Positions 54,148 through 57,771 of a stretch of DNA of 64,000 nucleotides are shown in pieces. Location of the stretch: positions 62,001-126,000 of the forward strand of contig NZ_QKSD01000007.1 in the NCBI RefSeq assembly GCF_003234085.1, given 5' to 3'. The translations under genes and the position numbers were made by a program. The notes below the pieces were generated by a model. That model had not been told where the DNA came from and did not search any database. It worked only from the letters and a program-made list of their open reading frames with translations. Each line of letters begins with the position of its first letter. Within the stretch, counting starts at the first letter, position 1. The stretch comes from Curtobacterium sp. MCPF17_052 (lineage in GTDB: Bacteria; Actinomycetota; Actinomycetes; Actinomycetales; Microbacteriaceae).

Positions 54148-55203
54148 CTACGCCGTGCCGGGGTCCTCGGCGCCCATGCCCGTCAGCAGGGCCCGGAACG
54201 AGTCGAGGCGCTCGACGCCGGTCGTCCCGAGTTCGCCGTTCTGTACCCGGTCGACGATCTCCCAGTCGTGCGCCTGGTCGAGCGGGATGCCGTCGGGGGA
54301 GTCCTGCACGGTGACCGCATGCGAGGCGAACGCGCGGAACACGTTCTCCGGCTGCACGTGGCCCAGGCCGAACGACCGGACGCCCGGGGTGTCGATGATC
54401 CAGCCGCCGTCCCGCACCCGCAGTGCGATCGAGGACGACGACGTGTGCCGCCCACGACCGGTGACGGAGTTCACGACGCCGATCGCCCGCGTCGACCCGG
54501 TCAGGGCGTTCACGAGCGTCGACTTGCCGACGCCCGAGTGCCCGACGGTGACGGTGACCTTGCCGTCCAGCAGCTCGTGCAACGCCTCGAACGGCACGTC
54601 ATCCGCGCGGCTCGTCACGATGCGCAGGTCGAGGCAGGCGAAGTGCGCCAGGAACGACGTCGGGTCGGCGAGGTCCGTCTTCGTGATGCAGAGGATCGGG
54701 TCGAGCCCCGCGTCGAACGCCGCCACCAGGTACCGGTCGATGAGCCGGGTCCGGGGCTCCGGGTCGGCCGCGGCGACGACGATGAGCATCTGGTCGGCGT
54801 TCGCGACGATGACGCGCTCGACCTCGTCCGAGTCGTCGGCGCTGCGTCGGAGCAGCGAGGTGCGCTCGGCCACCCGGACGATGCGGGCCAGGGAGCCCTC
54901 GTCACCCGAGACGTCGCCCGCGAGCGAGACGTGGTCGCCGGTCACGACGGACTTCCGGCCCAGCTCGCGTGCCTTCGTCGCGGTGACGACGTGCTCGCCG
55001 TCCTCGCTCGTCACCAGGACGCCGAACCGACCGCGGTCGACGTTCGTCACCCAGCCGGTCGGGGCGTCGTCGTACGAGGGTCGGGTCTTGGTGCGCGGCC
55101 GGTTGCCCTTCGGGTTCGGGCGGACACGGACGCTGGACTCGTCGTACTGGCCGTACGGCTCGTCCTCGTCGGTGCCGCCATCGGTCTCGTCCCACCAGCT
55201 CAT
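54148..55203 (-). CDS. rsgA: Small-subunit-dependent GTPase RsgA
   Basis: 351 residues; start fixed by the ATGA overlap with aroA. OB-fold then a circularly permuted GTPase: TKTDLADP (G4) precedes GHSGVGKSTLVNAL (G1) and DTPGVRSFGLGHV (G3). RsgA helps mature the 30S subunit. Odd: the usual C-terminal zinc motif (two Cys, His, Cys) is not visible; the segment reads AFASHAVTVQDSPDGIPLDQ without cysteines. Coupled to aroA as in many actinobacteria. Confidence 0.93.
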   Translation of the reverse strand: MSWWDETDGGTDEDEPYGQYDESSVRVRPNPKGNRPRTKTRPSYDDAPTGWVTNVDRGRFGVLVTSEDGEHVVTATKARELGRKSVVTGDHVSLAGDVSGDEGSLARIVRVAERTSLLRRSADDSDEVERVIVANADQMLIVVAAADPEPRTRLIDRYLVAAFDAGLDPILCITKTDLADPTSFLAHFACLDLRIVTSRADDVPFEALHELLDGKVTVTVGHSGVGKSTLVNALTGSTRAIGVVNSVTGRGRHTSSSSIALRVRDGGWIIDTPGVRSFGLGHVQPENVFRAFASHAVTVQDSPDGIPLDQAHDWEIVDRVQNGELGTTGVERLDSFRALLTGMGAEDPGTA

Positions 55204-56567
55204 GCCGGATCCCCTTCGCTCGTCCGCGCGGTGCTCGTCGCCAGCAGGTCGGCCCACAGCTCGGGGAACTGCGGCAGCGTCTTCGCGGTCGAGCCGATGT
55301 CGTCGACGGCCACGCCCGCCGTCACCAGGCCGACGACGGCTCCGGCGGTGGCCATGCGGTGGTCCTCGTACGCGGCCCAGTCGCCGCCGTGGAGCTGCGC
55401 CGGATCGATCCGCAGGCCCTCCGGTCGTTCCGTCACCGCGCCTCCGAGACCGTTGACGTCCGCCGCGAGCGCGGCCAGCCGGTCCGTCTCGTGGCCCCGC
55501 AGGTGACCGATGCCCGAGACCTCGCTCGGTCCGTCGGCCAGGGCCGCGAGCGCGACCAGCGCGGGGGCCAGTTCGCCGCCGCGGGTCAGGTCCAGATCCA
55601 CGCCCGGGACGGAGGCCCCACCCCGGATCCCGACGCCGCCGTCGAACACCAGGTCGTCACCGTCCCGCGTCACGGTCGCGCCCCACAGCGGCAGGAGCGT
55701 CTCGAGGTCGGCACCGACCTGCGTCGTCTCGGTCGGCCAGGTCCGGATCCGGACCTGGCCGCCGGCGACGAGGGCGGCGACGGCGAAGGGGGCCGCGTTC
55801 GAGAGGTCCGGTTCGATCGTGACGTCCCGCGCCGCGATCGGCCCGGGGTGCACGACCCACTCGCCGACCGACGGCTCGTCGACATGCACGCCGCGGGCGC
55901 GGAGGACCTCGACCGTCATGGCGATGTGCGGCAGGCTCGGCAGTCGCTCGCCGGTGTGCCGGAGGTGCAGCCCCTCGGTGAAACGCGGCGCGGAGAGCAG
56001 CAGCCCGGAGACGAACTGGGACGACGCCGACGCGTCGATGTCGAGCGCACCGCCCCGGACCGCGCCGGTGCCGACGAAGGTGAAGGGCATCGCGCCGCCG
56101 CCGTCGTCGGTGACCTGCACCCCGAGGTCGACCAGGGCCTGGACCACCGCGGCCATCGGGCGCTTCCGGGCGTAGGGGTCGCCGTCGATCGTGACCGGAC
56201 CCTCGGCCAGGGCGGCGAGCGGCGGCAGGAAGCGCATCACGGTGCCCGCGAGACCGCAGTCCACCCGGACGTCACCGTGCATCGGTCCGGGCGCGACCCG
56301 CAGGTCGGGACCATACGGGTTCACCGGGTCGCCGGCCGTGGGTCGGACCTCGTCGATCCCGACGCCGAGCTGCCGGAGCGCGGTCGTCATCAGCGACGAG
56401 TCCCGCGAGTGCAGCGGCAGGTGGATCGTCGACGGGCCGTCGGCCAGGGCGGCGAGGACGAGCTCCCGGTTCGTCAGCGACTTCGAGCCCGGCAGCGCGA
56501 CGTCGCCGGCCAGCGGGCCGCGCGCGACCGGGGCGGTCCAGGGGTGGGAATGCGTCGTGGCTGCCAT
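55200..56567 (-). CDS. aroA: 3-phosphoshikimate 1-carboxyvinyltransferase (EPSP synthase)
   Basis: 455 residues. Motifs: [67 protein letters not shown], and [17 protein letters not shown] near the end. It joins PEP to shikimate-3-phosphate in chorismate synthesis. Divergent from sigR; its start codon lies inside the spacer of the SigR-type promoter. Confidence 0.95.
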
Positions 56568-56572
56568 CGGTT
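56547..56572 (+). promoter_or_regulatory. SigR/SigH-type promoter of sigR
   Basis: GGAAT (56547-56551), 18 bp, GTT (56570-56572): an exact match to the known SigR/SigH consensus GGAAT-N18-GTT. A transcript from about 56578 would include the strong ribosome binding site at 56595-56601 and the GTG at 56606. It predicts positive autoregulation of the sigma factor. Confidence 0.8.
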
Positions 56573-56605
56573 CACCACACTACTGAACCCATCGGGAGGA
56601 GCACG

Positions 56606-57532
56606 GTGATCGCACTCGCACCGTCACGAACGGCCGACACAGCACTGCTGCCTCGGGTCGTCACGACGCTCGCCGAGCCACAGGGCCCGGACACCACCGT
56701 CCGCCTAGACTGGCGGGCGATGACGACCGACGAACCGCAGCACGCACCGGACGACCTGGTCGACGAGACCGAGGCGCAGCTCGACGCCGTCGAGGACGAA
56801 GACCTGGCCGGACTCGACTCCGACGCAGGGCCCGACGCGGCGCCCGAGCCCGTCGACGCGAAGACCGTGTCCGAGCACGAGCTGCGTCGTCTGTTCGAGG
56901 ACCAGGCGCTGCCGTTCATGGACCAGCTCTACGGTGCGGCGATGCGGATGACGCGCAACCCGGCCGACGCCTCCGACCTCGTGCAGGAGACCTTCGTGAA
57001 GGCGTTCGCCGCCTTCCGACAGTTCCGCCAGGGCACGAACCTCAAGGCGTGGCTCTACCGGATCCTGACGAACACGTTCATCAACACGTACCGCAAGAAC
57101 CAGCGGAACCCGTACCAGGGCACGATCGACGAGCTCGAGGACTGGCAGCTGGGCGGCGCGGAGAGCGTGACCCAGTCGATCTCGGCGCGCTCCGCCGAGG
57201 CCGACGCCATCGACCACCTGCCGTCCTCCGCCGTGAAGGACGCGCTGCAGGCCATCCCGGAGGACTTCCGGATGGCCGTCTACTTCGCCGATGTCGAAGG
57301 GTTCTCCTACCAGGAGATCGCCGACATCATGAAGACCCCCGTGGGGACGGTCATGAGCCGCCTCCACCGTGGCCGCCGGCTGCTCCGCGGACTGCTGGCC
57401 GACCACGCACGTGAGACCGGTGTCGTCCCGGACGCAGCGTCGACGGCGACGATGCGCGGACGAGGCCGAGGTGCAGGCACGCGGGCGGCCACGACGGCCG
57501 GCACCCGCACGACCCGGAAGGACGCACGATGA
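56606..57532 (+). CDS. sigR: ECF sigma factor SigR/SigH (two possible starts)
   Basis: 308 residues from the GTG at 56606 (GGAGGAG 4 nt upstream), or 270 from the ATG at 56720. Region 2: [20 protein letters not shown] and [20 protein letters not shown]; linker with [10 protein letters not shown]; region 4: [20 protein letters not shown], then [20 protein letters not shown]. These match SigR/SigH, the thiol-oxidative-stress sigma factor controlled by RsrA-type anti-sigma factors; rsrA follows with ATGA overlap. The tail is Arg/Thr-rich and probably disordered. Two promoters, two isoforms: see the regulatory entries. Confidence 0.93.
56706..56711 (+). promoter_or_regulatory. Second -10 box before the internal sigR start
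   Basis: TAGACT ends 8 nt before the ATG at 56720, the spacing used by leaderless genes in this window. It would give a constitutive short form of the sigma factor. Confidence 0.55.
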
Positions 57533-57771
57533 GCGGGTGTGACTGCTCGAAGGCGAAGGCGGAACTCGAGGAGTTCCTCCACGACGAACTCCGACACGAG
57601 GACGCTGCGGACATCCGCGAGCACATGGACGGCTGCGAGGACTGCCTCACCGAACACCGCGTCGGCGTGGTGCTCATGGAGACCGTCAAGCGCGCCTGCC
57701 GCGAATCCGCGCCGGAGCAGCTCCGGGACGAGGTCCTCGCCCGACTCCGCGCGGTGCAGTCGACCCACTGA
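57529..57771 (+). CDS. rsrA: Zinc-containing anti-sigma factor (RsrA-like)
   Basis: 80 residues. The ZAS motif HMDGCEDC (His-x3-Cys-x2-Cys) and an upstream [18 protein letters not shown] with Cys and His residues match the redox switch of RsrA/RshA. Reduced, zinc-bound protein holds SigR; disulfide stress releases it. Start overlaps sigR stop (ATGA). The short helical C-terminus ([15 protein letters not shown]) completes the family length. Confidence 0.92.

What the first reader, a model, noticed from the sequence alone, without database searches (positions are those of the whole stretch)
56547..56720. sigR has the signals for two isoforms: SigR promoter plus long start, leaderless promoter plus short start
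GGAAT-N18-GTT is an exact SigR-type promoter; 23 nt later GGAGGAG precedes a GTG that adds 38 residues to the sigma factor. A separate TAGACT box lies 8 nt before the internal ATG. In Streptomyces an N-terminally extended SigR form made from the autoregulated promoter is unstable and turns the response off; this window suggests the same logic in a distant family.
Basis: partly seen in the sequence, partly recalled or inferred. Interest (0 to 1): 0.7.

Follow-up and report, generated by a model that had tools for sequence, protein, structure and literature searches.

The report
Two-start stress sigma factor gene, sigR
The gene for a bacterium's oxidative-stress switch carries two separate sets of start signals, one self-activated for a longer protein and one hidden inside that longer reading frame for a shorter protein, and the same arrangement is written in many other actinobacteria besides the Streptomyces in which such isoforms are known.

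Summary
It is not chance. Of 102 distinct Microbacteriaceae sequences, 102 keep TANNNT exactly 8 nt before the in-frame ATG, with CTA as the Leu codon in 70 of 70 (0.7% of Leu codons in the sigma core); 101 have a SigR-type promoter upstream (shuffled 1.1). The best Shine-Dalgarno start between them is in frame in 92, out of frame in 1, tied in 8, absent in 1. Of 30 lower-scoring relatives, 20 have the whole set. Of 112 genomes of 33 other families, 86 have the N8 ATG in frame (0 in other frames) and 78 the whole set; 26 lack the ATG, among them all 8 Streptomyces-like and all 7 Mycobacterium-like loci. The isoform logic is known from Streptomyces sigR. New here is the leaderless short start, with its -10 box written into codons of the long form, as the commoner version in this sample. 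Instability of the long form is inferred, not shown: pN/pS of the extension is 0.83-0.90, and clpP1P2 lacks a SigR-type promoter here.

The parts
56547..56551 (+). -35 element GGAAT of the SigR-type autoregulatory promoter (p2)
   Evidence: p2 found in 101 of 102 family sequences; matches the SigH consensus GGAAYR-N17-18-GTT (PMC4803200, passage)
56570..56572 (+). -10 element GTT of p2
56595..56601 (+). Shine-Dalgarno GGAGGAG of the long form
   Evidence: match of 5 or more bases to the anti-SD complement at 76 of 101 long starts (chosen for best match) and 0 of 102 short starts
56606..57532 (+). long isoform of SigR (308 aa, GTG start)
   Evidence: TIGR02947 300 bits, cut-off 251.55
56606..56719 (+). 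38-codon N-terminal extension, present only in the long form
56706..56711 (+). -10 box TAGACT of the leaderless promoter (p1), written inside codons Leu(CTA)-Asp-Trp of the extension
56720..57532 (+). short isoform of SigR (270 aa, leaderless ATG)
57529..57771 (+). rsrA, redox anti-sigma factor; overlaps the sigR stop as ATGA
   Evidence: TIGR03988 61.7 bits, just under cut-off 62.5
55200..56567 (-). aroA, divergent neighbour; its first codons contain the p2 -35 and its ATG lies 2 nt before the p2 GTT
   Evidence: TIGR01356 334 bits
56577..56582 (-). TAGTGT, putative -10 box of a leaderless aroA promoter, 9 nt before its ATG
   Evidence: CAT inside p2 with TANNNT at N7-9 on the other strand in 87 of 101 sequences

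Best explanation
sigR makes two proteins from two promoters. A SigR-independent promoter (p1), whose -10 box sits inside the extension's codons, makes an mRNA that begins at or next to the internal ATG; this leaderless message yields the 270-residue SigR held by RsrA (box and start shown by conservation; leaderless use inferred). When RsrA is oxidised, freed SigR fires p2 upstream, and that mRNA carries a Shine-Dalgarno site and a GTG that yield a 308-residue SigR with a 38-residue tail (signals shown; use inferred). The tail's likely job is to make the stress-induced pool short-lived, as in Streptomyces (inferred by analogy). The -10 box is kept while the frame through it is kept, so one stretch of DNA is promoter and protein at once.
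For: TANNNT-N8-ATG in 102 of 102 sequences, with changing boxes (63 TAGACT, 21 TAGAAT, 12 TAAGCT, 6 others) and rare codons CTA 70 / GTA 31 / ATA 1. p2 in 101 of 102. Best Shine-Dalgarno start in frame 92, out 1, ties 8 (frame 0 in each), no candidate 1; the reverse complement of the same stretches gives 22/21/17 by frame. All 28 Curtobacterium sequences have that start in frame though the extension varies from 25 to 50 codons. Pattern [ATV][TVILA]L[EDTA] in residues 2-9 of 39 of 70 non-Curtobacterium extensions against 3.6 in shuffles (pattern chosen after seeing the sequences). 30 lower-scoring family members: N8 start in 27, plus p2 in 24, plus in-frame long start in 20. 112 genomes of 33 other families: in-frame N8 ATG in 86, whole set in 78. 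With the N8 ATG but no p2, the upstream frame closes within 13 codons in 3 of 8, against 0 of 78 with p2 (Fisher 0.0005; threshold set afterwards). In this genome GGAAT-N18-GTT precedes trxB, IMP dehydrogenase, SelR, sufB, superoxide dismutase and others.
Against: No transcript or protein data. pN/pS of the extension in Curtobacterium is 0.83-0.90, so most of it is under little amino-acid constraint; its last 6 codons give 1.76. The 0.36 for codons 2-9 came from 17 sequences chosen for an identical motif and is not independent. The motif is weaker outside the family (8 of 50, shuffled 0.73). 26 of 112 outgroup genomes lack the N8 ATG, including every sampled locus of 7 families. clpP1P2 and ClpC (contig C28) have no SigR-type promoter on the reading strand in the fetched flanks. 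No conserved -35 for p1. 4 of 24 lower-scoring relatives with N8 start and p2 have no in-frame long start of 9 or more codons.
Confidence: 0.78

Rival explanations
1. Two isoforms are made, but the extension does not shorten half-life; it tunes something else, such as RsrA binding or affinity for core polymerase, or simply allows Shine-Dalgarno translation from p2.
For: Extension pN/pS 0.83-0.90 and free length variation of 25-50 codons; clpP1P2 without a SigR-type promoter. For M. tuberculosis SigE, shorter and longer isoforms showed no main functional difference in preliminary studies (PMC10027907, passage).
Against: A short conserved N-terminal motif (39 of 70, shuffled 3.6) fits a recognition tag better than a spacer; the Streptomyces precedent is an unstable long form (PMC4921905 section 2).
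Confidence: 0.3
2. The only aim is two promoters. The extension is translated because the -10 box must lie close to the short ATG and p2 lies upstream, and in-frame translation through it is tolerated because the tail is harmless.
For: Near-neutral evolution of most of the extension.
Against: A Shine-Dalgarno start in the right frame is kept in 92 of 93 unambiguous sequences; a Shine-Dalgarno site directly before the short ATG, which would be simpler, is found in 0 of 102 (match of 5 or more).
Confidence: 0.15
3. The long start is an annotation artefact of a GC-rich frame; only the short protein exists.
For: High GC keeps frames open: frame 2 of the extension has a stop in only 16 of 100, while frame 1 is closed in 100 of 100, where the -10 box itself supplies a stop when it reads TAG or TAA.
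Against: Frame of the best Shine-Dalgarno start 92 to 1 with an even control; p2 just upstream (median 41 nt from GTT to the long start).
Confidence: 0.05

Closest known systems
Streptomyces coelicolor sigR p1/p2 with SigR and unstable SigR'
   Same: ECF sigma plus zinc anti-sigma operon, ATGA overlap, SigR-type promoter p2 upstream, upstream in-frame start giving an N-terminal extension (55-58 residues there, 38 here), downstream promoter for the short form (PMC5472188 passages and part of section 5, PMC4921905 section 2).
   Different: Short form in Streptomyces starts at GTC behind AGGAGGTG; here a leaderless-type ATG 8 nt after a -10 box. 0 of 8 Streptomyces-like loci have the N8 ATG although 8 of 8 have p2. 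Extension sequences look different (by eye).
Mycobacterium tuberculosis sigE (paralogue) with promoter-dependent isoforms
   Same: Isoforms of one ECF sigma factor chosen by promoter; a leaderless mRNA is among its transcripts (PMC10027907 and PMC4921905, passages; the two papers differ on which promoter gives it).
   Different: There the oxidative-stress promoter (SigH-dependent P3) lies inside the gene and gives shorter forms; here the stress promoter lies upstream and gives the longer form.
Corynebacterium glutamicum and Mycobacterium tuberculosis sigH-rshA
   Same: Orthologous sigma/anti-sigma pair (PMC3489674, PMC4921905, passages).
   Different: C. glutamicum sigH transcript starts lie 22, 89 and 93 nt upstream of the start codon, so not leaderless; 0 of 7 Mycobacterium-like loci here have the N8 ATG, 5 of 7 have p2.
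Leaderless genes of actinobacteria (TANNNT class)
   Same: TANNNT about 10-12 nt upstream of the start codon, no Shine-Dalgarno site (PMC3160421 and PMC3898074, passages).
   Different: Here the leaderless start is nested in the frame of a longer, Shine-Dalgarno-led form under another sigma factor, and is fixed at 8 nt over many families.

Membership tests
Streptomyces-type SigR/SigR' dual-isoform system | SigR-family ECF sigma factor followed by a zinc anti-sigma factor | tested here: met
   sigR TIGR02947 300 bits over cut-off 251.55; rsrA TIGR03988 61.7 bits, just under 62.5; HMDGCEDC (H-x3-C-x2-C) in the sequence
Streptomyces-type SigR/SigR' dual-isoform system | SigR-dependent promoter upstream of the long start | tested here: met
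   By sequence only: 101 of 102; the same motif before trxB, sufB and others in this genome
Streptomyces-type SigR/SigR' dual-isoform system | In-frame upstream start giving an N-terminally extended form | tested here: met
   By sequence only: 92 in frame, 1 out, 8 ties, 1 no candidate, of 102
Streptomyces-type SigR/SigR' dual-isoform system | Short form started at GTC behind a strong Shine-Dalgarno site | tested here: not met
   ATG in 102 of 102; SD match of 5 or more at 0 of 102 short starts
Streptomyces-type SigR/SigR' dual-isoform system | Long form unstable, degraded by Clp proteases | not testable with these tools
   needs half-life measurement
Streptomyces-type SigR/SigR' dual-isoform system | Clp protease genes in the SigR regulon (feedback) | tested here: inconclusive
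   No motif before clpP1P2 or ClpC on C28; GGAAT-N17-GTT before a Clp_N protein on C26 and GGAAT-N18-GTT before a ClpB-like ATPase on C27
Streptomyces-type SigR/SigR' dual-isoform system | WblC/WhiB7 site upstream of p1 | tested here: inconclusive
   No strongly conserved block between -60 and -20 of the short ATG in 101 sequences in ungapped register; no WblC model was used
Leaderless gene (TANNNT class) | TANNNT about 10 nt before the start codon, no Shine-Dalgarno site | tested here: met
   102 of 102 with N8; SD match of 5 or more at 0 of 102
Leaderless gene (TANNNT class) | mRNA 5' end at the start codon | not testable with these tools
   needs 5'-end mapping

The most novel reading that the evidence does not exclude
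In actinobacteria the resting form of SigR is started in a way that initiation factor IF3 disfavours (a leaderless ATG in most families, GTC in Streptomyces), whereas the stress-made long form uses an ordinary Shine-Dalgarno start and bears an N-terminal tag of the type M-x-A-T/V-L-D/E-R-P that marks it for turnover. The ratio of stable to unstable sigma factor would then read the state of the ribosome as well as redox state, and the SigR promoter, which overlaps the aroA start in most Microbacteriaceae examined, would also shut aroA down while the response runs.
Probability: 0.25. Interest if true: 0.75.

Novelty: new variant of a known kind. Interest (0 to 1): 0.55.

Why it matters
SigR' is described in the papers seen here as a Streptomyces device, with a short start (GTC, repressed by IF3) that looks like an oddity. 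The sequences here suggest that the two-isoform device is widespread in actinobacteria and that its commoner short start is leaderless, with a promoter fixed inside the coding sequence of the long form. That makes a general question testable in many easily grown genera: does a cell set the length of a stress response by choosing between a stable and an unstable form of the same sigma factor? It also warns that automatic start calls for these proteins may each be half right.

Tried and rejected
Chance match of GGAAT-N18-GTT: rejected (27 sites in the 3.54 Mb genome; 80 of 102 against 0.16 in resampled sequence). The 'pattern read backwards' control (0 sites) has a different base make-up and was not used.

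Openness of the frame as evidence: weak, because frame 2 is also open in 84 of 100 and frame 1 is closed in 100 of 100, with the -10 box itself supplying a stop where it reads TAG or TAA. The Shine-Dalgarno frame test was used instead. There the long start is picked for its match, so its better score than the short start is partly built in; the frame result is not.

Strong purifying selection on the whole extension: not found (pN/pS 0.83-0.90).

A first per-family table used a wrong codon phase and was replaced. An idea that Streptomyces keeps TAGACT in its LDW codons was dropped: the codons there are CTCGAC or CTGGAC in the Streptomyces-like loci printed.

SigR control of clpP1P2: no motif. 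SigR control of infC: only a GGAAC-N19-GTT inside a palindrome about 0.3 kb upstream, too weak to use.

Sampling limits: the 102 family sequences are the best matches to the query, so 30 lower-scoring or streamlined genomes were added by hand choice: N8 start in 27 (one of them GTG), with p2 in 24, with in-frame long start in 20; p2 without N8 start 1; neither 2. Two N8 ATGs out of frame were also seen in these 30. Three of the 30 (L297, L298, L299) are under the sigma model's cut-off, L298 and L299 far under. Sequences are related, so counts are not independent trials. Of 112 outgroup genomes, 58 are top-scoring rows were picked by hand across families; 6 stretches of genomes already held (L216, L219, L220, L221, L230, L235) were dropped from the counts. 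The N-terminal motif and the 13-codon threshold were set after looking at the data.

Papers: Kim 2009 (pmid 19682253) and Kim 2012 (PMC4546429) are not held. I recall, from no call, that the 2009 paper also reports an extended SigH in Mycobacterium smegmatis; if so, isoforms outside Streptomyces are already in print. In the listings I saw no title or abstract start that reports a leaderless sigR short start; these searches cover open-licence papers only. I looked inside 13 papers, as passages or single sections, none in whole: PMC5472188, PMC4921905, PMC3489674, PMC6282962, PMC4803200, PMC8999054, PMC3160421, PMC3898074, PMC5515868, PMC8103513, PMC9765437, PMC8138138, PMC10027907. Four of them (PMC8999054, PMC5515868, PMC9765437, PMC8103513) gave nothing used here.

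Full report
What is there. The window lies in a Curtobacterium-like genome (closest named relative C. salicis WW7, 97% identity in the best segment). sigR (TIGR02947, 300 bits) is followed by rsrA (TIGR03988, 61.7 bits, cut-off 62.5) with an ATGA overlap and preceded by divergent aroA (TIGR01356).

Relatives. 30 loci, 80 and the window make 111 sequences, which collapsed to 102 distinct ones. The short ATG was chosen by protein context (three by hand), not by DNA signal. TANNNT then lies at exactly N8 in 102 of 102; the boxes are TAGACT 63, TAGAAT 21, TAAGCT 12, TAAGAT 2, TAGGAT 2, TAAACT 1, TACAAT 1. The codon carrying the TA is CTA in 70, GTA in 31 and ATA in 1, although CTA is 11 of 1501 Leu codons and GTA 23 of 762 Val codons in the sigma core of the same set (window left out). 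The box has changed repeatedly but stayed TANNNT, as expected of a -10 box under selection. There is no conserved -35, but C and G stand at -19 and -18 in 85 and 83 of 101. Published work ties TANNNT about 10-12 nt before a start codon to leaderless genes in actinobacteria (PMC3160421, PMC3898074, passages).

The upstream promoter. GGAA[TC]-N17-19-GTT is present in 101 of 102; L088 is truncated. Resampled regions give 1.12, the reverse strand 0. Strict GGAAT-N18-GTT: 80 of 102 against 0.16. The M. tuberculosis SigH consensus is GGAAYR-(N17-18)-GTT (PMC4803200, passage). In this genome the strict motif occurs 27 times. I identified the gene downstream of 11 of the 26 other sites by family search: trxB and IMP dehydrogenase, SelR, DUF4193, FMN reductase, MDMPI_N (mycothiol-linked), SufB, a ClpB-like ATPase (Pfam AAA and AAA_lid_9; the name is mine), a zinc-dehydrogenase-type oxidoreductase, Fe/Mn superoxide dismutase and an OYE-type oxidoreductase. 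The other 15 sites were not run through a family search, and several have no convincing gene downstream. The set looks like a thiol-stress regulon, so the motif is very likely read by this SigR.

The long start. Between p2 and the short ATG, the start codon with the best Shine-Dalgarno match is in frame in 92, out of frame in 1 (L103), tied between frames in 8 (frame 0 among them each time), and absent in 1. On the reverse complement of the same stretches the unambiguous frames are 22, 21 and 17. Start codons (first of ties): GTG 44, ATG 40, TTG 17. A match of 5 or more bases is found at 76 of 101 long starts, which were picked for it, and at 0 of 102 short starts. So the two starts appear to belong to different classes of translation initiation.

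The extension. In 28 Curtobacterium sequences it varies from 25 to 50 codons, and in all 28 the best Shine-Dalgarno start is in frame. 0 of 100 extensions hold an in-frame stop. Amino-acid constraint is weak overall: pN/pS 0.90, or 0.83 without the last six columns, against 0.36 for codons 2-8 of the short form and 0.044 for the first 20 core codons. The exception is the N terminus: [ATV][TVILA]L[EDTA] within residues 2-9 occurs in 39 of 70 non-Curtobacterium extensions (3.6 in shuffles; 0 at residues 8-15) and 8 of 50 outgroup extensions (0.73 in shuffles). The pattern was set after seeing the sequences. A short tag followed by a free linker is consistent with a degradation signal but does not prove one.

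How far it reaches. In 112 genomes of 33 families outside Microbacteriaceae, an in-frame ATG with TANNNT at N8 exists in 86; in the other two frames in 0 and 0. Of the 86, 78 also have a SigR-type promoter upstream (looser pattern [GT]GAA[TC]-N17-19-GTT) and all 78 an in-frame start between. 24 of 33 families have at least one complete case. In 7 families no sampled locus has the leaderless ATG. One of them has a short form that begins GPV-TGTDAGTEH (L221), which matches the N terminus of S. coelicolor SigR in PMC5472188 (section 5); I take it as Streptomyces (0 of 8; p2 in 8 of 8). Another I take as Mycobacterium-like from recall of its sequence (0 of 7; p2 in 5 of 7). In the 8 genomes with the leaderless ATG but no p2, the upstream frame closes within 13 codons in 3; with p2 this happens in 0 of 78. 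Among 30 lower-scoring or streamlined Microbacteriaceae, 27 have the N8 start, 24 of these p2, and 20 of these 24 an in-frame start of 9 or more codons.

Mechanism. p1 gives resting SigR; p2, fired by SigR freed from oxidised RsrA, gives the extended form. In S. coelicolor the extended form has a half-life of about 10 min against hours for the short form, and proteases of the regulon remove it (PMC4921905 section 2; PMC5472188 passages). That last step is inferred here. It is weakened by the lack of a SigR-type promoter at clpP1P2 and at ClpC on contig C28, and only partly offset by such promoters at a Clp_N protein on C26 and the ClpB-like gene on C27.

A wider reading. In Streptomyces the short form starts at GTC and is repressed by IF3 (PMC5472188). 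IF3 also discriminates against leaderless mRNA, though its binding to the 50S subunit is suggested to promote it (PMC8138138, passages, work in E. coli). Both kinds of short start are thus of the type that IF3 disfavours on the 30S subunit, which suggests a shared design reached in two ways. This is a hypothesis with no direct test here.

A parallel. M. tuberculosis sigE, a paralogue, is also transcribed from several promoters, one leaderless, and its oxidative-stress promoter gives shorter isoforms (PMC10027907, passages). There the stress promoter is internal and shortens the protein; here it is upstream and lengthens it.

Neighbour. In 86 of 98 sequences with a recognisable aroA N terminus, the aroA start codon lies inside p2 at the same offset, and TANNNT sits 7-9 nt before such a codon on the other strand in 87 of 101. 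p2 and the aroA start region therefore share DNA, and firing of p2 should exclude aroA initiation (inference).

Databases. 7224 related proteins passed 1e-60 among 7998 candidates, of which 120 are listed; lengths differ for proteins that seem to come from one contig (290 and 276 aa for a 689135-base contig; 287 and 251 aa for a 251113-base contig), so start calls appear to vary; I did not align them, and none of the names shown mentions isoforms.

Verdict. The kind is known from Streptomyces; the leaderless, codon-embedded short start and its breadth are the new part, as far as the searched library shows.

Noticed in passing
56547-56582: The SigR-type promoter overlaps the start of divergent aroA: aroA ATG 2 nt before GTT, and a leaderless-type TAGTGT box for aroA just beyond. 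The aroA start codon is at the same offset in 86 of 98 relatives, so SigR activity may block aroA transcription.
   Followed up: partly
L220, L221, L163 (Streptomyces-like loci), extension region: Their extension reads ..LDWTVLH.. (CTGGACTGGACGGTGCTG or CTCGACTGGACGGTGCTG), in step with the LDWxxM end of many Microbacteriaceae extensions; it could be the remnant of a lost leaderless start.
   Followed up: no
L290, L291, L293, L296 (small Microbacteriaceae genomes): In these four streamlined genomes no SigR-type promoter was found; two of them (L290, L296) still have a leaderless-type short start.
   Followed up: partly
L269 about 1211 (own genome, upstream of infC): infC appears to start with ATC and has a GGAAC-N19-GTT inside a palindrome upstream; weak hint of SigR control of IF3.
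   Followed up: no
L267 about 1036 (own genome contig C26): A Clp_N/AAA protein distinct from ClpC has GGAAT-N17-GTT closely upstream of its likely start.
   Followed up: partly
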